The notes under the pieces: model-generated
Databases searched by the model: none
What the model was told of the DNA's origin: nothing
The model's input: only the letters and a program-made list of their open reading frames with translations
Position numbers and translations under genes: made by a program
Shown here: positions 4,216 through 20,543 of the stretch, one piece after another
How the letters are laid out: each line of letters begins with the position of its first letter
How positions within the stretch are numbered: position 1 is the first letter of the stretch
Assembly: GCA_021323895.1 (NCBI GenBank)
Contig: JAJPKD010000170.1
Coordinates: 1 to 39,041 of the forward strand
Direction: 5' to 3'
Length of the DNA stretch: 39,041 bases
Source of the DNA: Acidobacteriota bacterium
GTDB lineage: Bacteria; Acidobacteriota; Blastocatellia; Pyrinomonadales; Pyrinomonadaceae

Positions 4216-5934
4216 GTGACTTCCGGGTCTCAAAGCATGCAGGCGAAATTCACCGTCAAACCTCTCTCGAGGCTCCCAGCGAAACCTCCCGCCATAACTT
4301 CAGAGAAGAACAAAGACGTTCAGTCCCGCGGCCGCTTGCGCGAGTTGACCACAGAGTTGCGCGCGCTTGAGACGAAGCTTCGCGCCGGCGGCGGGCCCGA
4401 CAAAATTGAGAAGCAACATCAACAAGGGAAGCTGACTGCGCGTGAGCGAATCGATTTGCTGCTCGATAAAGATTCCTACCGGCAAGAAATCGGATTACTG
4501 GTCGCGTTCGATCAGTACGATGGCGGCGCGCCGGGCGCCGGAGTTGTCACCACTGTCGGGCGAGTCAAGGGCAGGGAAGTCGTCGTCGTGGCGAATGACG
4601 CGACGGTGAAAGCCGGATCGTGGTGGCCTGAGACAATCAAGAAAATTCTGCGCGCGCAGGAAATTGCGATGCGCTCGCACGTCCCCATCATCTATCTGGT
4701 CGATTCGGCGGGCGTGAATCTGCCTTATCAAGGTGGCGTGTTCCCTGGTGAATATGGCGCGTCGCGGATCTTCTATTACAACTCGATCATGCGGCGTTAT
4801 TTGAAAGTCCCTCAGATTTCCGCGGTGATGGGGCCATGCATTGCCGGCGGCGCGTATCTGCCGGCGCTGTCCGACATCATCATCATGGTCGAAAAGACTT
4901 CGTTCATGGGATTAGGCGGCGCGAATTTGGTGAAAGGCGCGACCGGCCAAACTATCGACAACGAAACGCTCGGCGGCGCGCTGGCGCACAACGAAATTTC
5001 TGGTGTCGCGCATTATCGCGTAAAGAATGACGAGGAAGCCATCGCGAAGATTCGGGAGTTCGTCGGGGAATTGCCAAGGAAGGAGTCAGGAGTCAGGAGT
5101 CGGGAGTCGGGAGTAGAACCAAAAACACCGGAAGAAAGGATCTACGATCTCCTTCCCGAAGATCATCGCCAGCACTACGACCTGCGCGCGGTGCTTGATT
5201 GCCTGCTCGACGAAGGTCATCTCGACGAATTTCAAGCGGACTACGCGAAGGAAATCATCACCGGTCACGCGCAGATTCGCGGAATCCAGGTTGGTGTGAT
5301 CGCAAATGCCCGAGGGATGTTTCGCGATCCGGCTGGTGGGCCACCGAAATTCGGCGGCATCATCTACACAGAATCGGCAGAGAAGGTCGCGTACTTTATC
5401 GACACCTGTAATCGACACGGCACGCCGCTCGTTTTCATCCAGGACGTTTCCGGCTTCATGGTTGGTTCCGAGGCTGAGCATTCCGGAATTATTCGCGCCG
5501 GTGCTCGCTTCGTGGAAGCGATGGCCACCGCGGCGGTGCCGAAGATCGTGCTGACCCTCAATCACGCGTCCGGCGCGGGTTACTACGCCATGGCCGGTCA
5601 GGGCTTCGATCCGGATTTCATTTTCAGTTGGCCCACCGGACGCATGGGCGTCATGGAAGGCGAGTCGGCGGTGCAGGCGACGTTCGGAAGTCAACTCCAG
5701 GAATTGAAAGTAAAAGGCAATGAGCCAAGTGACAAACTAATTTCTGAGATGCAGAAGGTTCGGGATACTTACGAGCGAGACCTCGATGCGAAATACGCAG
5801 CGGCGCGCGGCTTTGTCGATGCGGTGATTGCGCCGGAAGAGACTCGCGACGCGTTAGAGCTTGCATTACGCGTAAGTTTGCATTATTCAGGTCCGCATCT
5901 GGGACAATTCATTTTGCCGGCTTCATTAACTTAG
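4216..5934 (+). CDS. Acyl-CoA carboxylase carboxyltransferase (beta) subunit, methylcrotonyl/geranyl-CoA carboxylase type
   Basis: Carboxyltransferase half of a biotin-dependent acyl-CoA carboxylase; it moves CO2 from carboxybiotin to an acyl-CoA. 572 residues from GTG 4216 (565 from ATG 4237; neither has a convincing RBS). Two crotonase-fold lobes are visible. The N lobe has IYLVDSAGVNLPYQ and GPCIAGGAYLPALSD at about residues 160-220. The C lobe has FIQDVSGFMVGSEAEHSGI, NHASGAGYYAMAG and WPTGRMGVMEGE at about 405-490. The pattern resembles methylcrotonyl-CoA (LiuB/MccB) or geranyl-CoA (AtuC) carboxylase more than propionyl-CoA carboxylase. No biotin carboxylase/biotin carrier gene is nearby, so its partner is encoded elsewhere. 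Oddity: five seven-base repeats (5081-5115) are translated as a linker between the lobes. Downstream AtuA and hydratase genes fit leucine or acyclic terpene breakdown. Confidence 0.88.
   Translation: MTSGSQSMQAKFTVKPLSRLPAKPPAITSEKNKDVQSRGRLRELTTELRALETKLRAGGGPDKIEKQHQQGKLTARERIDLLLDKDSYRQEIGLLVAFDQYDGGAPGAGVVTTVGRVKGREVVVVANDATVKAGSWWPETIKKILRAQEIAMRSHVPIIYLVDSAGVNLPYQGGVFPGEYGASRIFYYNSIMRRYLKVPQISAVMGPCIAGGAYLPALSDIIIMVEKTSFMGLGGANLVKGATGQTIDNETLGGALAHNEISGVAHYRVKNDEEAIAKIREFVGELPRKESGVRSRESGVEPKTPEERIYDLLPEDHRQHYDLRAVLDCLLDEGHLDEFQADYAKEIITGHAQIRGIQVGVIANARGMFRDPAGGPPKFGGIIYTESAEKVAYFIDTCNRHGTPLVFIQDVSGFMVGSEAEHSGIIRAGARFVEAMATAAVPKIVLTLNHASGAGYYAMAGQGFDPDFIFSWPTGRMGVMEGESAVQATFGSQLQELKVKGNEPSDKLISEMQKVRDTYERDLDAKYAAARGFVDAVIAPEETRDALELALRVSLHYSGPHLGQFILPASLT
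5081..5115 (+). repeat. Five tandem heptamers inside the carboxylase coding sequence
   Basis: AGGAGTC three times, then GGGAGTC and GGGAGTA, period exactly seven. The array is translated without breaking the frame and yields the low-complexity linker ESGVRSRESGVE between the two carboxyltransferase lobes. It belongs to the same repeat class as the arrays at 1269-1370 and 21562-21640. Confidence 0.9.
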
Positions 5935-5980
5935 CGTTTGTTCGCAGAGCTTTATTTTGCAGCAACAAAGGAGAAGAACC

Positions 5981-6634
5981 GTGAGAAAGAGCACCATCTA
6001 TCTTTTCGGCTTGAGCGCTGTCGTGCTGGTGATCGCAGCGATGGCCACCGCAGGATTCGTGGTTTCGGCGCAGAATTCAAACTCGTCAACTACGATGACC
6101 GGCAACTCAAATACCGGCAAGGCCAAGCCGCGACATCGTCGCCCGAGAAAGCCGGCGACTACAACCGGCGATACCAGCATGGCGGCAATGCCGCAGAAAA
6201 CTGGCAAGTGTGATCCGACCCAACAGGAGCAGACTGATCTATCCGGAACCTACGTCGGTAAAGCGACGCACGGCAAAACACCGCCAGTTGAAGCGACGCT
6301 GACGATTACCGGGAACAACTTCTCGATGACGTCGGGTTCGGAAACTCACTCGGGCCGCATGACGGCGGTGACCACGTGTGGATACACGGCCGTCACCATG
6401 ATGATGGGTGACATGACGCCGGTGACGCCGAGCCCAAACCCGCCGCCGATGAACAAAGCGATGTCGATGCGCGCCAAGAAAGTCGGCGACAAACTCATGT
6501 TGACCAGCGTGCCGGGCGAGCCCATGGAAGTGAAGTTCGTCACCAACGGGATGGGCATGGGGATGAAGCCGCGCAAGCATCGCTCGATGACGAAGAAGAC
6601 AACGACTTCGGCGCCCGCGAAAACAACGCCGTAA
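5981..6634 (+). CDS. Small secreted hypothetical protein with basic Thr/Pro-rich segments
   Basis: Start taken at GTG 5981 because a strong Shine-Dalgarno (aaaggag, 5967-5973) precedes it; the frame is open 24 bases further upstream. 217 residues. Residues 1-30 form a signal peptide (MRKSTIYLFGLSAVVLVIAA, cleavage probably after VSA). A low-complexity Ser/Thr/Asn and Arg/Lys-rich stretch follows. A central domain of about 100 residues (LSGTYVGKATHG, then ATLTITGNNFSMTSGSETHSGRMTAVTTCGYTAVTMMMGD) is predicted to be beta-rich and holds two cysteines that could form a disulphide. The tail is rich in Met, Gly and Lys. I recognise no family. It sits between carboxylase and atuA genes but is probably not metabolic. 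Confidence 0.7.
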   Translation: MRKSTIYLFGLSAVVLVIAAMATAGFVVSAQNSNSSTTMTGNSNTGKAKPRHRRPRKPATTTGDTSMAAMPQKTGKCDPTQQEQTDLSGTYVGKATHGKTPPVEATLTITGNNFSMTSGSETHSGRMTAVTTCGYTAVTMMMGDMTPVTPSPNPPPMNKAMSMRAKKVGDKLMLTSVPGEPMEVKFVTNGMGMGMKPRKHRSMTKKTTTSAPAKTTP

Positions 6635-6742
6635 CGAAGTTCGATTTGAGTTGATTATCAGGCACGGGATCGTGGCGGCGAGACAGCGTCGAGAGACTCT
6701 CGGTCGCGCGCGTTTCGGTTCCCGTGTCTTGCCGTGTTTGGA

Positions 6743-8110
6743 ATGAAACAGAAAATCAGAGTTGCGGCCGGTCAGGGCTTTTGGGGCGATTTGCTCGATG
6801 CACCGGTGCGCCAGGTTGAGGGCGGGCCGATTGATTACTTGATGCTTGACTATCTGGCTGAAGTCACGATGTCGATCATGCAAAAGCAGAAGGCGCGCGA
6901 CCCTAACGCTGGTTACGCGCGCGACTTCGTGCCGCTGATGAAGCGGATCTTACCGACTTGCGTGGAACGAAACATCAAAGTTACGGCAAACGCCGGCGGC
7001 GTAAACGTGCGAGCCTGCGCTGACGCGGTGCGAGAAGTTGCGCGTGAATTAGGTTTGGCAGGCAAGCTGAAGATCGGCATTGTCACGGGCGACGACATTC
7101 TCGAGCGCGTCGATGATTTGATCGGCCGCGGGATTGAGTTACGTAACATGGACACAGGCGAGCCGCTCAGCTCAGTTCGCGATCGCATTCAAAGCGCGAA
7201 TGCTTATCTCGGGGCTGCGCCGATCGTTGAAGCGTTGAAAGAGGGCGCTCAAGTTGTTATCACCGGACGCGTGACGGATACAGGACTGACGCTCGGTCCG
7301 TTGATGCACGAGTTTGGCTGGGCGGCGGACGATTGGGACAAGTTGGCGGCCGGGACTATCGCCGGTCACATCATCGAGTGCGGCGCGCAATGCTCCGGCG
7401 GCAACTGCCAATACGATTGGCAGAACATTCCTGACATGGCGAACGTCGGCTTTCCGATAGCCGAGGCTTCGCCTGATGCGACCTTCGTGATTACCAAGCA
7501 CGACGGCACGGGTGGTCGCGTGAACGTTCAATCGGTAAAGGAACAACTCGTTTACGAGATGGGTGATCCCTACGAGTACATCACGCCAGATTGCGTTGCT
7601 GATTTCACGACGATTCACCTCGCCGACGATGGCGCGGATCGCGTTCGTGTGTTCGGCATCAAAGGACGATCTGCGACCGACTCGCTGAAGGTGTCGATCA
7701 GTTATTCGGCTGGATACAAAGCGGTCGGAACTTTGGTTTACGCCTGGCCTGACGCCTATGCGAAGGCGAAAGCCGCGGATCAAATTTTGCGCATGCGGCT
7801 GGATCGGCTGGGACTAAGATTCGATCAAGTGCTGACCGAGTTCGTAGGCGCGAACGCGACGCACGGCATTCTTGCCGGAGAGCCTTCGACTGATATTGCT
7901 GAAGTGCAGTTGCGCGTCGGTGTGCGCGGAAACGATCGCGCCGCCATTGAAAGGTTCACGAAGGAAATTGCGCCGTTGATCTTAACCGGTACGCCCGCCG
8001 TGACAGGATTTGCCGGCGGACGCCCAAAAGTAGAAGAGATCGTCGCTTACTGGCCGGCATTAATTCCGAAGAGTGAGATCAAATCTCAGGTTGAAATCCT
8101 CGACGTTTAG
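6743..8110 (+). CDS. AtuA family protein (DUF1446), main domain
   Basis: 455 residues from ATG 6743 (an in-frame GTG lies at 6734). The N-terminus [18 protein letters not shown], the segment [18 protein letters not shown] and the motifs [49 protein letters not shown] and [11 protein letters not shown] mark the AtuA/acyclic terpene utilisation family. AtuA is needed for citronellol/geraniol growth in Pseudomonas, but its reaction is not established. Conserved Cys, His and Asp residues in the [12 protein letters not shown] block look like an active site. In many bacteria this domain is fused to the small domain encoded by the next gene; here the two are separate and about 30 bases apart. It lies between a carboxylase beta subunit and a hydratase-like gene, which supports a role in branched acyl-CoA or terpene catabolism. 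Confidence 0.87.
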
Positions 8111-8140
8111 TCTGATCGAGAATGGAGCAGGAATAAGGAA

Positions 8141-8500
8141 GTGAAGATTCAGCTCGCAAAACTTGCCCACGCGCGTTCCGGCGATAAAGGAGACACGGCC
8201 AACGTGGGACTGATTGCACTGCGTGAAGAGTTCTATCCGCTGTTGACTCGCAAGGTGACGGCTGAACGCGTCAAAGAGCATTTCAACGGCGTCGTCAAAG
8301 GTGAGGTCGAGCGATTCGAATTGCCCAATCTGGGAGCGTTGAATTTCCTCTTGCACGAAAGCCTCGGCGGCGGTGGCACGTTGTCTCTGATGACCGACGC
8401 TCAAGGAAAGACTTTTTCCACCGCACTGCTGCGAATGCAGATCGAAGTTTCTGATAATGAAGCAGCGGAATTGGGATTGGCTGCGCGGACTGAGGACTGA
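8141..8500 (+). CDS. AtuA-like C-terminal (ferredoxin-fold) domain protein
   Basis: 119 residues from GTG 8141, with aaggaa five bases upstream. The sequence LAHARSGDKGDTANVGLIAL near the N-terminus and FLLHESLGGGGTLSLMTDAQGK in the middle match the small domain that follows AtuA in fused proteins, or is its neighbour when split. It probably assembles with the preceding AtuA product. No catalytic role is known. The stop at 8500 is followed two bases later by the next ATG, so the genes are tightly coupled. Confidence 0.82.
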   Translation: MKIQLAKLAHARSGDKGDTANVGLIALREEFYPLLTRKVTAERVKEHFNGVVKGEVERFELPNLGALNFLLHESLGGGGTLSLMTDAQGKTFSTALLRMQIEVSDNEAAELGLAARTED

Positions 8501-8502
8501 GA

Positions 8503-9291
8503 ATGGGCGCTGATGAAATTTTGGTTTCTGAGGCCGGCGACGGCGTTGCGCGCCTTACCCTCAATCGTCCGGACAAGCGCAATGCGCTGAACGACGAATT
8601 GATCGCAGCGCTGAAGAGCGCGCTGCGCCGGGCGCACGATGATCCCACGATTCGAGTCGCGGTTCTTACTGGTGCCGGCTCCGATTTTTGTTCTGGCGCC
8701 GACCTGGCCGCATTGCAGAAAATTTCGATGGCTTCGGTTGCGGAGAATCTCGTTGACGCACAATCACTGATGGAATTGTTTCTGTTAATTCGTGAGGTAC
8801 GCATGCCGGTCATCGCCGCTGTACGCGGTCGCGCGTTGGCGGGTGGGTGCGGGTTGGCGCTGGCTTGCGACATGGTTATGGCCGAACAGGGCGCGCGATT
8901 CGGTTTTCCCGAAGTGAAGATTGGCTTCGTGCCCGCAATGGTAACGGCAATTCTCAGACGAAACGTTTCCGAAAAGCGCGCCTTCGAACTGTTGACTGTC
9001 GGACGAGAGATCGACGCGCAAGAAGCCGCTGGAATGGGCCTGGTGAATCACATCTTTGAGAGCGGAACTTTCGAAGAACAAGTGCAAGAGTTCGCATCTC
9101 AATTCACAAAACTCAGCAAATCTGCCGTTGAACTATCGAAGCGTCTTCTCTATCGCACGGACGAATTATCCTTCGAAGATTCGTTGGCTGCGGGCGCGGA
9201 CGTTAACGTTACGGCCCGCATGACAAGCGATGTGAAGAAGGGAATTGCCGCGTTCCTCAGTCGCAGCGGTGGGCCTAATCGCGAGGCTTAA
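8503..9291 (+). CDS. Enoyl-CoA hydratase/isomerase family protein
   Basis: Crotonase-fold protein of 262 residues. [11 protein letters not shown] (20-30) and [12 protein letters not shown] (60-71) mark CoA binding and the first oxyanion strand; [18 protein letters not shown] (110-127) and [16 protein letters not shown] (131-146) form the active-site helices. Of the two glutamates used by classical hydratases, the second (E137, in PEV) is present. The first is a glycine (G117, in GGCGLAL). The protein could therefore be an isomerase, a hydratase with altered mechanism, or a methylglutaconyl/isohexenylglutaconyl-CoA hydratase. Context (carboxylase beta, AtuA) favours the last. The 3' end overlaps by 17 bases the convergent B12-binding subunit gene on the other strand. 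Confidence 0.88.
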
Positions 9292-9685
9292 CGTTATTTC
9301 GGATGAACTCGGCGATGTCCTGCGTCGATGTGCCGGGAAGAAAAATTTCTGCTACGCCTTGTTCCTTTAATTTCGGAATATCTTCCTGCGGAACAATCCC
9401 ACCAAGGACGACCAACGTGTCAGCCATTCCTTGCTCGCGCAACAGCGAGACGATGCGTGGGCAGAGTGTGTTGTGAGCGCCGCTGAGGATTGAGACTCCC
9501 ACAGCATCAACATCCTCCTGCAAAGCAGCCGCGGCAATCATCTCGGGTGTTTGTCGAAGGCCGGTGTAGATAACTTCCCTTCCCGCATCGCGGAGCGCAC
9601 GCGCGATCACCTTAGCGCCGCGATCATGACCATCAAGGCCGGGCTTCGCGACCAATACCCTGATTCGTTGGTTAGATTGAGACAT
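9275..9685 (-). CDS. B12-binding small subunit of an acyl-CoA mutase
   Basis: 136 residues from ATG 9685; a longer frame runs into the upstream gene. This is the cobalamin-binding Rossmann-like domain of methylmalonyl-CoA mutase family enzymes. It shows the DGHDRG (D-x-H-x-x-G) lower-ligand histidine motif near residues 18-23, [10 protein letters not shown] (the S-x-L motif) and VVLGGIVP (the GG motif). As a free subunit it pairs with the large subunit encoded eight bases upstream, as in isobutyryl-CoA mutase (IcmA/IcmB) and archaeal methylmalonyl-CoA mutases. The two genes are clearly one transcript. The 3' end overlaps the convergent hydratase gene. Confidence 0.9.
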
Positions 9686-9693
9686 GAATGCAA

Positions 9694-11373
9694 TTAGATC
9701 GCAGGTTCCTCGTAAACGCCGTAAACATCGCGCAAGGCGGAGCAAATCTCGCCCAGTGTCGCGTACTCGCGGACGGCATCGATGGTTGCCGGCATAGTGT
9801 TGTCGCCTCGTTGAGCGGCTTGCTTGACCGCAGCGAGAGTCCGATCAACTGCGCCCCTGTCACGCTTCGCACGCGCTTGCTCGATCCGCTCAATCTGGTG
9901 ATTTCGGACTGATTCGTCGATGACGAGAATCGGGACTTCCTGAACCTCGTCCTTCATCACGTACTTGTTCACACCGACGATTGTTTGATCGCCGCGTTCG
10001 AGAGCTTTCTGGTATTGATAAGCTGATTCCTGAATCTCGCGTTGCGGAAATCCTTTCTCGACGGCTTCGACCATGCCACCCATCGAATCGATGCGATCAA
10101 AGTATTCCATTGCGCCACGCTCCATCTTGTCGGTCAGCGCTTCGACAAAGTAGGAGCCACCCAGCGGATCCACAGTATTCGCGACCCCTGTCTCTTCCGC
10201 GATAATCTGCTGCGTGCGCAAGGCGATTAACGCGGCCTTGTCAGTCGGCAGGGCCAGTGCCTCATCGTAGGCGTCAGTGTGCAGCGATTGCGTTCCGCCC
10301 ATCACGCCCGCTAGCGCTTGGATCGCGACTCGGACGATATTGTTCAGTGGCTGCTGTACAGTTAGAGAGACGCCGGCAGTCTGTGTGTGGAACCGCAACT
10401 TCAAAGTTCGTTCGTCCGTGGCGCCGAAACGCTCTCGCATAGTACGCGCCCAAATTCGTCTGGCCGCTCGGTACTTGGCGACCTCTTCAAAGAAATCATT
10501 GTGCGCGTTAAAGAAGAACGAGATTCGCGGAACAAAGCGATCAAGGTCGAGGCCGGCGCGGAGGCCCCAGTCAACGTACTCGATTCCGTCGCGAAGCGTG
10601 AAGGCAAGTTCCTGCAAAGCGGTCGCGCCAGCTTCACGAATGTGATAACCGCTGACTGAAATCGGGTTGTACTTCGGCACGCGCAGCGCGCAAAACTCGA
10701 ACGTGTCAACGACAAGTTTCATCGCCGAGCGGATCGGGTATATCCATTCTTTCTGGGCGATGTACTCTTTGAGAATGTCGTTTTGAAGCGTGCCAGAAAT
10801 CTTCTTCCAATCAGCGCCTTGCTTTTCCGCCACGACTAGATACATTGCCAGGAACACTGATGCCGGCGCGTTGATGGTTTGTGACACCGTAACGCTTTCA
10901 AGCGGAATCCCGACGAATAATGCTTCCATGTCGGCCAGAGAAGAAACCGCGACGCCGCACTTACCGACCTCGCCCTCTGACAGCGACGAATCCGCGTCAT
11001 AGCCCATTAGCGCGGGCAAATCGTAGGCGACTGAGAGACCGGTCTGTCCTTCCTTCAGGAGATATTTGAATCGCGCGTTCGTCTCTTCAGGGGTTCCAAA
11101 GCCGGCGAACTGGCGCATGGTCCAAAGCTTGCCGCGATAACCGGTGGCATGAATGCCTCGCGTGTACGGGAACTCGCCCGGATAGGAAAGGTCGTCTTCG
11201 ACGTCAATCTCGGCAACGTCTGCGGGATCGTAAAGTCGATTAACCTCTTCGAGAGACACAGTCTGAAAGTGCGTCTTCCGCTCGGGTTGCCGAGCGAGAG
11301 CAGGGCGCAAAGTCTCGTCATGCCACCGTTCTCGTTGCAGATTTTCAGAGGAGGTTTCCTTAAGTTCTGGCAT
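9694..11373 (-). CDS. Acyl-CoA mutase large subunit, isobutyryl-CoA mutase-like (methylmalonyl-CoA mutase family)
   Basis: 559-residue TIM-barrel subunit of an adenosylcobalamin enzyme that rearranges a CoA-linked carbon skeleton. Numbering coincides with the well-studied Propionibacterium methylmalonyl-CoA mutase through the active site: W84, T85, R87 (WTMRQ), S114 and H244 (SGYHIREAG) are conserved. Two substrate-carboxylate residues differ: Tyr89 is Phe (RQFAG) and Arg207 is Gln (YIAQKEW). Phe/Gln at these positions is the known signature of isobutyryl-CoA mutase, which interconverts isobutyryl-CoA and n-butyryl-CoA. [18 protein letters not shown] and [10 protein letters not shown] are further family blocks. 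Automatic annotation would probably say methylmalonyl-CoA mutase. The B12 subunit follows eight bases later. A strong promoter lies at 11422-11451. Confidence 0.9.
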
Positions 11374-12710: not shown

Positions 12711-14747
12711 ATGAAACCAATTAAATATGCGGAGCGTGGACTGGCGGCAGCAGCCGGAGCCATCTTCAATTCCATTCAGGCGGTTAACAAATATAAGCCG
12801 AATCCGTCGTTTACGCCGAAATGGTCGGACAAACCACTCTTAAAATCATGGCAAAAATCTAAGCCGACTCTGGGTTGGCCTCGGGTAACTGATTCATTGT
12901 GCCCGAATTGTGTAATTGAAGCTCGCGAGTCGATCCTAAATGGCAGTCAGGACGTCTCGGTTCTCGTGAACGAAAAAGTTGGCGAGATCAAGGCTCAAAT
13001 TATTGAGCGCGATGGTGAAATTTGGATGGTGAAAGATTGCCCAATCCACGGGCACTTCGAAGACGTCATGGCGATCGATTCAAAGTTCCTGACGCACATC
13101 GAAACGATGTTTCCCGGTCGCGATATCCCTTCGCATAACGATGAAAAACTACACAACCATGGCTCGAGCACGATCAAATATGGCCGCGGTGCAGTACTAA
13201 CCGTTGACCTGACAAATCGCTGCAACATGATGTGTGATCCGTGCTTCATGGACGCCAATCAAGTGGGTTTCGTTCACGAGCTGAGCATGGAAGAGATCAA
13301 AGAAATTCTGGACAACGCGATCTCCATTAAGCCGCGCCGGCAGATGTCAGTTCAGTTTTCGGGCGGCGAGCCGACTATTTCGCCGCATTTTATCGAAGCG
13401 ATCAAGTATTCGCGCAAAGTTGGGTACAACTCGGTTCAGGCGGCGACCAACGGAATCGAGGTCGCGAAAAGCAAGGAATTCTGTCGCGAAGCGGCGGAGG
13501 CGGGATTACGTTACGTTTACTTCCAATTCGATGGGATTGGTAACGATGCGAACAGCCACCGCCAGGTTGGCAATCTCTTCGACGTTAAGCTGCGCGCAAT
13601 CAATAACCTGCACGAAGCGGGCGTCGAGATCGTTTTAGTGACGACCCTTGTCAACGGAATCAACAATGACCAGGTTGGGTCGATTATTCGCTTCGCTTTA
13701 GACAATCCGAAAAAGATTGCGTTCCTGTCGTTCCAACCTGTCTCGTTTACAGGTCGCGATGAGGCTATTACCGCTGAGCGTCGCTTACAACAGCGCTACA
13801 CACTTTCACACCTTGCGCACGATGTGAAGAACCAGGTGGGAATCACTGAGCCGACCCGCGATTGGTTTCCGCTTTCGCTGATGGGTGCGTTCGCCGATTT
13901 CGCCGATCTAGTTCACGGTGCGAACTCGGAATGGGGTCAGGTCTCCTGCGGCTGCCATCCGAATTGCGGTGTCGGAACCGCGGTGATGATCGACAAGGAA
14001 ACGAAAGAAATGAGCCCAGTGCCGGCTTTCCTGAACATCCCGGGATTGGTCAAGGACATGCAGAAGATCACGGATGCAGCTCGCGGAAAGTGGATGTCGA
14101 ATCTGATGATGGGGCTGGCACTGCTGAAGCATTATCGACCACAGAATGCGCCGTCGCAGTTCAATCTCTATGAGTTGTTCAAGAAATTCGACAAATCCTT
14201 CGGTCTGACCGGCAAGGATTACGGCAAGGTCAGCGGCGATCGTAGCAAGGAAGATATTGAAAAACGCCGTTCGGATCGCTGGAACTTCCTGTTCATCGCC
14301 GGTATGTGGTTCCAGGATCTCTTTAACTACGACTTCCGCCGCACGGAGATGTGCATCATCCCGTACGGAACTCAGGAAGGCGAAATCAGCTTCTGTGCCT
14401 ACAACACCGGAATCGGCTGGCGAAACATCATCGAGCACATGCACCAAAATGCGACCGTTGCGAAGTGGTACGAAGAGCACGGCCGGCATGAAATCTTCGC
14501 GGGCGGCAAGGATGTTCCGCTGTCAGACGCGACTCATAATTTGAAGCTCAATGAAGTCGATCTCATGCGCCCGAACAAGCCCCACATGGAAGGGCCAAAG
14601 ACCGCGCATGAGGAGATGGTTATGATGCGAAAGCTCTATAACGAAATGGTGCTCAAGCAACAAGCCATCACGACCGACAATGCTGACAAGCCAGTCCAAA
14701 TTCAAGGCTTGGGGCGCAAGAAGGAAGCCGCAGTTGCTTCCGTCTAA
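12711..14747 (+). CDS. Radical-SAM protein resembling tetraether / membrane-spanning lipid synthase (Tes-like)
   Basis: 678 residues from ATG 12711, with agggag nine bases upstream. An N-terminal zinc-ribbon or rubredoxin-like part has CPNC (C64, C67) and CPIHG (C110). The radical-SAM cluster C-x3-C-x2-C is CNMMCDPCF (C171, C175, C178), followed by SGGEP (217-221, SAM binding), ATNGIE and YFQFDGIG. More cysteines follow at SCGCHPNCG (C413, C415, C419) and at C548 and C562, suited to auxiliary Fe-S clusters. This order matches archaeal Tes, which joins two lipid tails by C-C bond formation, and the bacterial homologues linked to membrane-spanning iso-diabolic lipids. Family membership is well supported by motifs; the exact reaction is inference. 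Residues 430-680 are longer than in the archaeal enzyme. Single gene with its own terminator. Confidence 0.8.
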   Translation: MKPIKYAERGLAAAAGAIFNSIQAVNKYKPNPSFTPKWSDKPLLKSWQKSKPTLGWPRVTDSLCPNCVIEARESILNGSQDVSVLVNEKVGEIKAQIIERDGEIWMVKDCPIHGHFEDVMAIDSKFLTHIETMFPGRDIPSHNDEKLHNHGSSTIKYGRGAVLTVDLTNRCNMMCDPCFMDANQVGFVHELSMEEIKEILDNAISIKPRRQMSVQFSGGEPTISPHFIEAIKYSRKVGYNSVQAATNGIEVAKSKEFCREAAEAGLRYVYFQFDGIGNDANSHRQVGNLFDVKLRAINNLHEAGVEIVLVTTLVNGINNDQVGSIIRFALDNPKKIAFLSFQPVSFTGRDEAITAERRLQQRYTLSHLAHDVKNQVGITEPTRDWFPLSLMGAFADFADLVHGANSEWGQVSCGCHPNCGVGTAVMIDKETKEMSPVPAFLNIPGLVKDMQKITDAARGKWMSNLMMGLALLKHYRPQNAPSQFNLYELFKKFDKSFGLTGKDYGKVSGDRSKEDIEKRRSDRWNFLFIAGMWFQDLFNYDFRRTEMCIIPYGTQEGEISFCAYNTGIGWRNIIEHMHQNATVAKWYEEHGRHEIFAGGKDVPLSDATHNLKLNEVDLMRPNKPHMEGPKTAHEEMVMMRKLYNEMVLKQQAITTDNADKPVQIQGLGRKKEAAVASV

Positions 14748-18149: not shown

Positions 18150-20543
18150 TCATTTTGGAACGAGAGTGATTGAGTCTTTGGCAGCATTTTCAACCGCAGA
18201 CTTGCTGAATGGGAACCTTCGTGGCGTCACGTCGCGCCAATCATCGAGCTGGTCTTTCCAATGCGGACTCGACGCCAGTCCCGATTCTCCAAGCGTGATG
18301 CCGTGCAGAGTAGCGTCCCAGTCGGTGGGATTGGCGATGAAGCGCATCGAAACATTGCTGCCGACGTTTACTGTCGGCCCGAGCGAGCCGACCCCGTTCT
18401 GCGGAATCGGTGGAATTGTAAATTGCAGTCCGATCAGCGGAGCCGCTGCCAACGGATGATTGAAGCGGACCTTTTGCATCTCGCCCCACTTCCATTTTGA
18501 TTCATCCGCGCCAAGACTCTTCGTTAACGCCTGGCGCGCGTCGGCATAACACGCGCGCAATAACGCAGCATAGCTATTGAATTCTTTCGGCAACCATTCC
18601 TTGGGTTGCTCGGCAATGATGCGATCCAAAGTAGTCTCGAAATTGGCCCAGCCGTAAGCCTTAATCAGATCAGGACCGAGGGCAGCGGTCAAGATTCGGC
18701 TGCGAAATGCGGCACGCATTTGGAAGATCAGCGGCGCCACTGTCGAGTCCGCGTTGACCTGGCCGTCCCATTTTTCAAATCCCGCAACGGTTGCTTGCAA
18801 ACCTGCGTCATCGGCACTAGGCCCCAGCATCTTCGCGGTCGCTTTCGCAAACGATGACAGTCCGATCGAATAAACGTCGCCTTGGATCTTTCGAAAGTCT
18901 TCCATGGTGAGTTTGTTGTTTTGACTCAGTAAGTCCCAGATGCGACGCGCGCGATAGGGTTGCGCCCATGAGTGCGTGAGAAAGTACGGATAGTCAGTGC
19001 CAACGATCCGCTGGTTCGCGGTGACGATTATTCCTGACGGTGGATCGTAAACCTGCGGCAGCTTTTCGGTGGGAATATAACTGACCCATTCGCCGGCGTC
19101 AGTCGAACCATCATAGGGAACGCTGCCATCACCGGACTTCCTGATTGGAACCACGCCCGCCGCGTGATACCCGATGTGGCCATCGGCATCTGCAAAGACA
19201 ATATTCTGGGTCGGCGCCGTAAAGGTGCGCAACGCTTCGGAGAAGTCCTTCCAGTTGCGTGCGCGTCCGAGGGTAAAAATGCTGTCCGCCCGGTTAAGTT
19301 TCGGATCCAAAGCGGTCCAGTGAAGCGCATAACGCTTTGAATCTTTTTCGAGCACGATGGGGCCGTGTCGCGTTACCGTCACGTCGAGCGTGACGGTATC
19401 AACGTCCGCACTCGTATAGTTCTTTCGCACCTTAATCTCTTCGCGACGGACTTCGGCGTCGCGCCAGCCCTGCGGAGTCAGGTAACGCTTTGGGTTCTCC
19501 GGATCAAATTTTTCGATGTAGAGGTCCTGAACGTCGGGGCCAACGTTGGTGAAGCCCCACGCGATGCGCTCATTGTGCCCGATGACAATGCCCGGAATCC
19601 CGGGCGAAGTCACACCGGCCACGTGAATGTTCGGCGACTTTAGATTCACCAGATACCAAATCGATGGTGCCGATGCAGCGAGGTGCGGATCGTTGGCAAG
19701 CAGAGGCTTTCCCGAAGCGGTATGCTTGCCACTCACGACCCAATTGTTGCTCGCGGCCAGCGCTTCAGCATACAGGCCGACTCGTTCGAGCGCGGCCGCT
19801 TCAATCTCCTTCGACTTCGCAACCTCGTCAATTAGCGGTTTTGAGACTGATCCAGGGTTCCTCGAAAAATTGATAGAAGCGCGATTGCTCTTCGTATCTT
19901 TCCCGACCACGAGCACATCGATAGGAGAGATTTCGGGCATCAATGCAGCGCGTTTCTCCGCCGGCAGACTGGCAAGCGCTTCGCGCATCACGTCCAGGCG
20001 CCACGTTGAAGACAATGCCTCAGAAAAGAGTTTGGTGGGGAGAAGGGAATCAGCCGCGGTCCACGGTTGCGGTTGGTATCCCAGAATCCGAAACTCCGGC
20101 GGCAGGGATTTCGCGTCCAGAGAATTGATGTAGGCATTCACGCCCTGCGCATAGGCTTCGAGAACGCCGCGCGCTTGCGGCGATGCCAGCGCAAGTTCAG
20201 CATCAACCTCCTGCGCGAATCCCATCGTGCGGTGTTGCTTGTCCTGATCGAGCGCCGGCGTGCCCAATACTTCCGCCAGTTTACCGCGCGCGGTTCGCCT
20301 CATCATATCCATCTGCCACAGGCGATCGCTCGCCATGACGTAACCTTGCGCAAAATAAAGGTCTTCATCGTTTGCAGCTTCAATGTACGGGATGCCACGC
20401 TCATCGCGGCGCACCGTAACTTCGCTGTGAAGACCGGCAATCGAAATCTTGTTCGCCGGTTGCTGAGCGGATGGCGTGCGAAATACGAATATTGAAACTA
20501 GAAGAATAAAGCTCGTGCAAGTGACAATCTTGAAGCGTTTCAT
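18150..20543 (-). CDS. Penicillin acylase family (Ntn-hydrolase) periplasmic protein
   Basis: 797 residues with an N-terminal signal peptide (FKIVTCTSFILLVSIFVF, cleavage near APSAQQ-type residues 25-28). These precursors autocleave to an alpha chain, a linker and a beta chain that begins with the nucleophile. Here the junction is EALAAS-NNWVVSGKHT, with Ser265 as the predicted N-terminal nucleophile. DERGIPYIEA and DLYFAQGYVMASDRLWQMDMMRR in the alpha chain, and LLANDPHLA plus NIVFADADGHIGYHAAG in the beta chain, are family blocks. Members hydrolyse amides such as beta-lactam side chains, acyl-homoserine lactones or cyclic lipopeptides; the substrate here is unknown. Followed directly by thpR. 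Confidence 0.92.
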   Translation of the reverse strand: MKRFKIVTCTSFILLVSIFVFRTPSAQQPANKISIAGLHSEVTVRRDERGIPYIEAANDEDLYFAQGYVMASDRLWQMDMMRRTARGKLAEVLGTPALDQDKQHRTMGFAQEVDAELALASPQARGVLEAYAQGVNAYINSLDAKSLPPEFRILGYQPQPWTAADSLLPTKLFSEALSSTWRLDVMREALASLPAEKRAALMPEISPIDVLVVGKDTKSNRASINFSRNPGSVSKPLIDEVAKSKEIEAAALERVGLYAEALAASNNWVVSGKHTASGKPLLANDPHLAASAPSIWYLVNLKSPNIHVAGVTSPGIPGIVIGHNERIAWGFTNVGPDVQDLYIEKFDPENPKRYLTPQGWRDAEVRREEIKVRKNYTSADVDTVTLDVTVTRHGPIVLEKDSKRYALHWTALDPKLNRADSIFTLGRARNWKDFSEALRTFTAPTQNIVFADADGHIGYHAAGVVPIRKSGDGSVPYDGSTDAGEWVSYIPTEKLPQVYDPPSGIIVTANQRIVGTDYPYFLTHSWAQPYRARRIWDLLSQNNKLTMEDFRKIQGDVYSIGLSSFAKATAKMLGPSADDAGLQATVAGFEKWDGQVNADSTVAPLIFQMRAAFRSRILTAALGPDLIKAYGWANFETTLDRIIAEQPKEWLPKEFNSYAALLRACYADARQALTKSLGADESKWKWGEMQKVRFNHPLAAAPLIGLQFTIPPIPQNGVGSLGPTVNVGSNVSMRFIANPTDWDATLHGITLGESGLASSPHWKDQLDDWRDVTPRRFPFSKSAVENAAKDSITLVPK

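What the first reader, a model, noticed from the sequence alone, without database searches (positions are those of the whole stretch)
12711..14747. Tes-like radical-SAM enzyme: candidate membrane-spanning lipid synthase
Seen: an N-terminal CPNC...CPIHG metal site, C-x3-C-x2-C radical-SAM motif, SGGEP, and extra cysteines at 413-419, 548 and 562. Known: this layout is that of archaeal tetraether synthase and of bacterial homologues proposed to join two fatty-acid tails into iso-diabolic acid, a hallmark lipid of Blastocatellia. Inference: this gene makes membrane-spanning lipids here. The C-terminal half is longer than in the archaeal enzyme and may define a bacterial subclass.
Basis: partly seen in the sequence, partly recalled or inferred. 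Interest (0 to 1): 0.8.

Follow-up and report, generated by a model that had tools for sequence, protein, structure and literature searches.

The report
Bacterial Tes-like lipid coupling enzyme, variant
The gene encodes a bacterial relative of the archaeal enzyme that welds two lipid tails into one membrane-spanning lipid, and it belongs to a large, previously undistinguished subclass that has lost one of the archaeal enzyme's iron-sulfur clusters.

Summary
Its closest solved structure is archaeal tetraether synthase (Tes, MJ0619/7TOM): phmmer E 4e-62; predicted model (pLDDT 90.8) superposes over 477 of 498 residues, Z 42.9. The rubredoxin site, the radical-SAM cluster, and the catalytic C-terminal cluster with its labile methionine (Met439 = Met532) are conserved. 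The N-terminal auxiliary [4Fe-4S] site of Tes (C73, C77, C80) is absent: 0 of 172 window-type proteins have it, 14 of 14 archaeal-like bacterial homologues do, and the tree needs one change. The window protein therefore falls in a distinct Acidobacteriota/Myxococcota subclass, below NCBI's Tes cut-off. It is near-universal in its class (28/28 same-family genomes, 18/19 others) and is the only Tes-family gene in named Acidobacteriaceae, a group that makes 12-49% iso-diabolic acid. Best explanation: it joins the ends of two iso-C15 acyl chains to make iso-diabolic acid; no activity has been shown. That bacterial Tes homologues might do this was proposed in 2022. The cluster-less subclass appears undescribed in the papers searched. 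Verdict: partly supported; new variant of a known kind.

The parts
12711..14747 (+). Tes-like radical SAM enzyme gene, 678 aa plus stop; AGGGAG about 9 bases upstream of the ATG
12714..12794 (+). predicted N-terminal helix, residues 2-28, absent from archaeal Tes; possible membrane-association helix (inference; its hydrophobic moment is only moderate)
12900..13049 (+). rubredoxin-like metal site C64-x2-C67 ... C110-x2-H113 (= C9, C12, C33, H36 of MJ0619); Pfam PF23545
13050..13220 (+). region where archaeal Tes binds its N-terminal auxiliary [4Fe-4S] cluster; no Cys here, conserved H148-x-H150-G instead
13221..13244 (+). radical-SAM motif C171-x3-C175-x2-C178
13359..13373 (+). SGGEP (217-221), SAM-binding motif
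13731..13757 (+). FQPVSFTGR (341-349), identical in MJ0619; holds the SAM-loop residues Q268, S271, R275
13947..13967 (+). C413, C415, C419; C419 = Tes C338 (ligand candidate for the catalytic auxiliary cluster), C413/C415 characteristic of the bacterial subclass
14304..14306 (+). M532 = labile cluster ligand Met439 of MJ0619
14352..14396 (+). C548 and C562, remaining cysteines of the catalytic C-terminal auxiliary cluster
14493..14744 (+). C-terminal tail, residues 595-678, beyond the part that superposes on 7TOM; conserved in clade A to about residue 645, disordered from 663

Best explanation
[quoted passage not shown] Proposed steps, all inferred by homology with MJ0619: two phospholipids bind with their tails in the two hydrophobic pockets; the C171/C175/C178 cluster cleaves SAM; the 5'-deoxyadenosyl radical takes H from a terminal CH3 of one tail; the carbon radical is stored as a C-S bond on the C-terminal [4Fe-4S] cluster (C419, C548, C562, labile M532); a second SAM cleavage makes a radical on the other tail, which attacks the stored carbon to form the sp3-sp3 C-C bond. 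[quoted passage not shown] Not shown: activity, substrate, product, metal content.
For: Closest solved structure by sequence and by fold is Tes: E 4e-62; Foldseek E 1.3e-35, TM 0.87 on the target; Z 42.9, 477/498 residues, 2.5 A. Ligands of the catalytic C-terminal cluster, including the labile Met, are invariant in a 75-sequence alignment across all bacterial types (C419, M532, C548, C562), as is the SAM-loop arginine R349, with FQPVSFTGR identical in MJ0619. Tes binds ester-linked bacterial phospholipids in its active site (PMC9433317), and the isopropyl ends of iso-C15 and phytanyl chains are alike (PMC8941075). Distribution: clade A is in 28/28 same-family and 18/19 other same-class genomes sampled. 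Named Acidobacteriaceae (Granulicella aggregans, Granulicella S156 and L60, Acidipila rosea) hold exactly one Tes-family gene, of this type, while cultured relatives contain 12-49% iso-diabolic acid (PMC11354219, PMC12935467); Pyrinomonas and Chloracidobacterium, of the same class, also make it (PMC4644332, PMC12816986). Edaphobacter aggregans has a single Tes homologue at 32% identity to archaeal Tes (PMC8941075), the value of clade A here (30-33%).
Against: No enzymatic test of any bacterial Tes homologue was found in the papers searched. The N-terminal auxiliary cluster of Tes is missing, so function could have shifted. Score is below the curated Tes cut-off (324.6 against 450 bits). No conserved gene neighbourhood ties it to lipid genes. 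The second Tes paralogue in this genome could be the actual coupling enzyme.
Confidence: 0.7

Rival explanations
1. Same chemistry on a different lipid: the enzyme cross-links other tails (mixed iso-C15/iso-C17, one phospholipid into a macrocycle, or lipid A-type acyl chains), and iso-diabolic acid is made by the second paralogue or by an Mss enzyme.
For: The genome holds a second, 50% identical Tes paralogue, beside an lpxD-like gene. Archaeal Tes makes both macrocycles and tetraethers (PMC8941075, PMC9433317). One of two Methanosarcina Tes copies made only trace macrocycle (PMC8941075).
Against: Named Acidobacteriaceae carry only clade A and no second copy, and members of that group are rich in iso-diabolic acid (PMC11354219, PMC12935467).
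Confidence: 0.17
2. A Tes-fold enzyme with another radical reaction (tail methylation, desaturation or ring formation) on membrane lipids, the lost N-terminal cluster marking the change.
For: The N-terminal auxiliary cluster is absent in 172 of 172 A/B proteins; the long branch to A/B (2.07 changes per column) shows strong divergence. The rubredoxin domain (PF23545) bears the name of an earlier, methyltransferase reading of MJ0619.
Against: The catalytic auxiliary cluster and its labile Met, which hold the C-S intermediate in Tes, are retained without exception in the 75-sequence alignment.
Confidence: 0.09
3. It is Mss, the known bacterial membrane-spanning lipid synthase.
For: Mss makes iso-diabolic acid in Bacillota and is described as sharing the Tes catalytic architecture (PMC13274423).
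Against: Thermotoga maritima, which makes diabolic acids (PMC8788747), has no match to the Tes model at 1e-28 nor to the rubredoxin domain, whereas both Tes-like genes here match both. The Black Sea survey treats Tes and Mss as separate searches (PMC11868695). No Mss sequence could be compared directly.
Confidence: 0.04

Closest known systems
Archaeal tetraether synthase Tes / GDGT-MAS (MJ0619; PDB 7TOL, 7TOM)
   Same: Whole fold (Z 42.9 over 477/498 residues), rubredoxin C/C/C/H site, radical-SAM motif, FQPVSFTGR SAM loop, C-terminal auxiliary cluster cysteines and labile Met
   Different: 31% identity; lacks the three cysteines of the N-terminal auxiliary [4Fe-4S] cluster; has extra C413 and C415, an N-terminal helix, a longer rubredoxin loop and a C-terminal tail; substrate presumably ester-linked iso-acyl chains
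Archaeal-like bacterial Tes homologues (here clade C, about 510-620 aa; their 40-42% identity values match those published for Koribacter and Solibacter)
   Same: Same family, same catalytic cluster, also in Acidobacteriota, sometimes in the same genome
   Different: Clade C keeps the N-terminal auxiliary cluster (14/14), is 37-48% identical to MJ0619, and lacks the CxCHPxC motif
Second paralogue in the same genome (clade B; contig C263:2-1570, cut by the contig end)
   Same: Also lacks the N-terminal auxiliary cluster; same catalytic motifs as far as the contig goes
   Different: 50% identity; clade B lacks clade A's conserved tail; B type also occurs in Myxococcota
Mss, bacterial membrane-spanning lipid synthase
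   Same: Proposed product (iso-diabolic or diabolic acid) and C-C coupling of acyl tails
   Different: Appears to lie outside the Tes model by the Thermotoga maritima control; no sequence available here

Membership tests
Tes / GDGT-MAS | Radical SAM CX3CX2C cluster | tested here: met
   C171, C175, C178
Tes / GDGT-MAS | Rubredoxin site CX2C...CX2H | tested here: met
   C64, C67, C110, H113; Pfam PF23545 48 bits against cut-off 27
Tes / GDGT-MAS | N-terminal auxiliary [4Fe-4S] cluster (C73, C77, C80 + His) | tested here: not met
   No Cys at 111-170; 0 of 172 A/B proteins have the motif, 14 of 14 clade C proteins do
Tes / GDGT-MAS | C-terminal auxiliary [4Fe-4S] cluster with labile Met439 | tested here: met
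   C419, C548, C562 and M532 align with C338, C455, C470 and M439 and are invariant. The paper's text names Met439 but not these cysteines; they are inferred from the alignment
Tes / GDGT-MAS | SAM/5'-dAH contacts F106, Q268, S271, R275, R210 | tested here: inconclusive
   F179, Q342, S345 and R349 conserved; the R210 position aligns to Q285, next to R284
Tes / GDGT-MAS | Overall fold | tested here: met
   Foldseek TM 0.87 on target; Z 42.9, rmsd 2.5 A over 477 residues
Tes / GDGT-MAS | NCBIfam NF045702 equivalog cut-off (450 bits) | tested here: not met
   324.6 bits, yet the best-scoring family
Tes / GDGT-MAS | sp3-sp3 coupling of lipid tails | not testable with these tools
   needs enzymology or lipid analysis
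Mss (bacterial membrane-spanning lipid synthase) | Sequence similarity to characterised Mss | tested here: inconclusive
   No Mss sequence held; only an indirect test: T. maritima does not match NF045702 at 1e-28 or PF23545
TrsS (seleno)protein, NF045646 | Curated cut-off 490 bits | tested here: not met
   209.6 bits

The most novel reading that the evidence does not exclude
Acidobacteria and Myxococcota share, from a single origin, a Tes-derived class of lipid-coupling enzymes that dispenses with the N-terminal auxiliary [4Fe-4S] cluster (conserved HxHG in its place) and carries an added CxC next to the catalytic auxiliary cluster. This class, rather than archaeal-like Tes homologues or Mss, makes the abundant iso-diabolic acid of aerobic soil Acidobacteria. 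It would mean that the N-terminal cluster is not needed for sp3-sp3 coupling, and that clade A genes mark iso-diabolic acid producers while clade C genes mark brGDGT producers.
Probability: 0.45. Interest if true: 0.72.

Novelty: new variant of a known kind. Interest (0 to 1): 0.55.

Why it matters
iso-Diabolic acid and the related brGDGTs underlie widely used palaeotemperature and pH proxies, yet the coupling enzyme of Acidobacteria is unproven (PMC11868695 states that bacterial Tes function is unconfirmed). Separating bacterial Tes homologues into cluster-less (A/B) and archaeal-like (C) classes gives a testable gene-to-product rule and better marker genes. Lloyd et al. (PMC9433317) say the roles of the remaining metallocofactors of Tes are unclear; a large natural subclass lacking one of them is a ready-made experiment.

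Tried and rejected
Viral relatives: none found by protein patterns; the one viral contig with the CGCHPNCG DNA pattern holds no Tes ORF. Plasmid relatives: only 24-33% identity radical SAM hits. Conserved operon: none beyond Pyrinomonadaceae (surE/pcm side); 17 of 87 clade A loci share an ABC transporter neighbour, not followed. PlsA/Ger-type ether-lipid genes (PF09989): absent from this genome while T. maritima matches, so the anaerobic PlsA/Ger route to ethers is unlikely here (genome about 95% complete). Direct comparison with Mss: no sequence obtainable; Sahonero-Canavesi et al. 2022 and the two primary acidobacterial lipid papers were not held. The VIA-align list contains many MoaA/viperin/SuiB rows; they share only the radical SAM core (Z 14-21) and were not pursued as candidates. 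No coordinates were available for measuring distances between the modelled cluster ligands.

Full report
Observation. The ORF at 12711-14747 (+) encodes 678 aa. The start ATG at 12711 follows an AGGGAG about 9 bases upstream.

Family. phmmer against the PDB gives one strong match, the M. jannaschii tetraether synthase GDGT-MAS/Tes (7TOL/7TOM), E 4.4e-62, then generic radical SAM enzymes at 1e-6 or worse. NCBIfam's best family is Tes (NF045702, E 9e-97), but at 324.6 bits it is under the curated equivalog cut-off of 450. Pfam finds the radical SAM core and the HMPTM/Tes zinc-ribbon (rubredoxin-like) domain. A prediction on a 75-sequence alignment has pLDDT 90.8 and pTM 0.90. It matches 7TOM with Foldseek E 1.3e-35, TM 0.87 on the target, and VIA-align Z 42.9, 2.5 A over 477 of 498 residues. 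The next family, MoaA, is at Z 21 and covers the core only.

Metal sites. From the structure paper (PMC9433317), MJ0619 has a rubredoxin iron (C9, C12, C33, H36), an N-terminal auxiliary [4Fe-4S] (C73, C77, C80, His), the radical SAM cluster (CX3CX2C), and a C-terminal auxiliary [4Fe-4S] with labile Met439; [quoted passage not shown] Aligned to MJ0619, the window protein keeps the rubredoxin ligands (C64, C67, C110, H113), the radical SAM cysteines (171, 175, 178), the catalytic cluster (C419, C548, C562, M532) and the SAM loop FQPVSFTGR. It has no cysteine at all where the N-terminal auxiliary cluster should be; a conserved H148-x-H150-G lies there. The particular cysteines of the C-terminal cluster are my inference from the alignment; the paper's searched text names only Met439.

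Subclasses. Bacterial homologues fall into three groups. Clade A (window type, about 64-93% identical to the window) and clade B (about 46-62%) lack the N-terminal cluster: 0 of 172 sequences with the region complete have CX3CX2C there, and HxHG is present in 131/133 A and 34/39 B. Clade C (about 28-36% identical, shorter) keeps it in 14 of 14. The CxCHPxC motif (C413, C415, C419) is in all whole-genome A and B sequences that cover it. Its count in the named loci is circular, because that motif was used to fetch them. In a tree with the trait's own region removed, the cluster-less proteins are one side of a branch (SH-aLRT 100, one change, shuffled mean 13.9); with all columns the A/B branch is 2.07 changes per column long. 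These are quick trees with one archaeal row, so the root and the exact sister of A/B are unsure. Median identity to MJ0619 is 31% for A, 31% for B, 42% for C. The published values are 32% for Edaphobacter aggregans and 42% and 40% for Koribacter and Solibacter (PMC8941075; measured against another archaeal Tes). By identity these correspond to A and C types respectively (inference; those sequences were not fetched).

Distribution. Of 396 genomes of the phylum, 208 have a Tes-family match. All 28 sampled genomes of the window's family and 18 of 19 others of its class carry the strong, clade A type. The family is Pyrinomonadaceae: contig G195:C30 (213,036 bases) has the same length and match position as the named locus L101. 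All 118 hold a Tes-family ORF, nearly all Acidobacteriota, the rest Myxococcota or deltaproteobacterial MAGs of B type plus one intermediate. In Myxococcota, 11 of 190 genomes have a B-level match. Named isolates Granulicella aggregans, Granulicella S156 and L60, Acidipila rosea and Bryobacterales F-183 hold exactly one Tes-family gene, of clade A.

Link to phenotype. Cultured Edaphobacter strains contain 12-30% iso-diabolic acid (PMC11354219) and Occallatibacter relatives 27-49% (PMC12935467). Chloracidobacterium and Pyrinomonas, of the window's class, make it too. Since sampled Acidobacteriaceae isolates have one Tes-family gene and it is clade A, that gene is the obvious Tes-family candidate there. 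These are group-level associations; the lipid data and the genomes are from different strains. That bacterial Tes homologues may make membrane-spanning lipids was proposed by Zeng et al. 2022 and is described as unconfirmed in 2025 (PMC11868695).

Second gene. The source genome holds a second Tes-like gene, 50% identical, clade B, cut by the end of contig C263 and divergent from an lpxD-like gene. Many genomes of the family have two matches, and the six second copies fetched are all clade B. Division of labour is unknown.

Mss. The anaerobic-bacterial synthase Mss is a rival. Thermotoga maritima, a diabolic acid producer, does not match the Tes model at 1e-28 or the rubredoxin domain, so Mss and this gene are probably different families; I could not compare sequences. 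Several other radical SAM genes in this genome are unassigned, so an Mss homologue here is not excluded. PF09989, expected for PlsA/Ger-type ether formation, is absent here but present in T. maritima, so ester-bound products, or ethers by another route, are expected.

Mechanism. By homology: two SAM cleavages, H abstraction at a terminal methyl of each iso tail, storage of the first carbon radical on the C-terminal cluster sulfide, then coupling. iso-Diabolic acid (13,16-dimethyl C28) is what an omega-to-omega join of two iso-C15 chains gives. Retention of the catalytic cluster and its labile Met in every class argues that the coupling chemistry persists; loss of the N-terminal cluster suggests that it serves electron delivery or structure in archaea and can be replaced. 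All of this paragraph is inference.

Verdict. The archaeal layout is only partly kept, the function is likely but unproven, and the subclass is the new element.

Noticed in passing
genome contig G000:C263:2-1570 (locus L032): Second Tes-like gene (clade B), 50% identical, cut by the contig end and divergent from an lpxD-like acyltransferase gene; many genomes of the family carry both copies.
   Followed up: partly
window 4216-11373: Cluster resembling leucine/branched-chain acid catabolism upstream of the gene: carboxyl transferase, AtuA, enoyl-CoA hydratase, and a methylmalonyl-CoA mutase large domain on the other strand. Possibly relevant to iso-C15 precursors, more likely incidental.
   Followed up: no
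L146 (CALQCC020000001.1): A MAG titled 'Bordetella parapertussis' carries a clade A gene that groups with Bryobacterales F-183; the title is probably a mislabelled acidobacterial bin.
   Followed up: partly
L084 (G263:C7) and L083 (G073:C24): In two genomes of family f15 an archaeal-like clade C gene lies within about 0.8 and 6 kb of the clade A gene on the same strand, suggesting joint use.
   Followed up: no
L102 6379-7998 and similar loci: An ABC transporter gene neighbours the clade A gene in 17 of 87 loci, possibly a lipid exporter.
   Followed up: no
window 13152-13163: Near-invariant HxHG exactly where archaeal Tes has cluster cysteines; could bind a mononuclear metal or be structural.
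   Followed up: partly
window 18150-20543: 797-aa penicillin-acylase family ORF on the minus strand, with only a weak match to the PvdQ acylase model.
   Followed up: no
L153 (CALMDF010000132.1): A MAG titled Holophagales carries a clade B gene; Holophagae are not known to me as iso-diabolic acid producers, so either the bin name or the gene-product rule needs checking.
   Followed up: no
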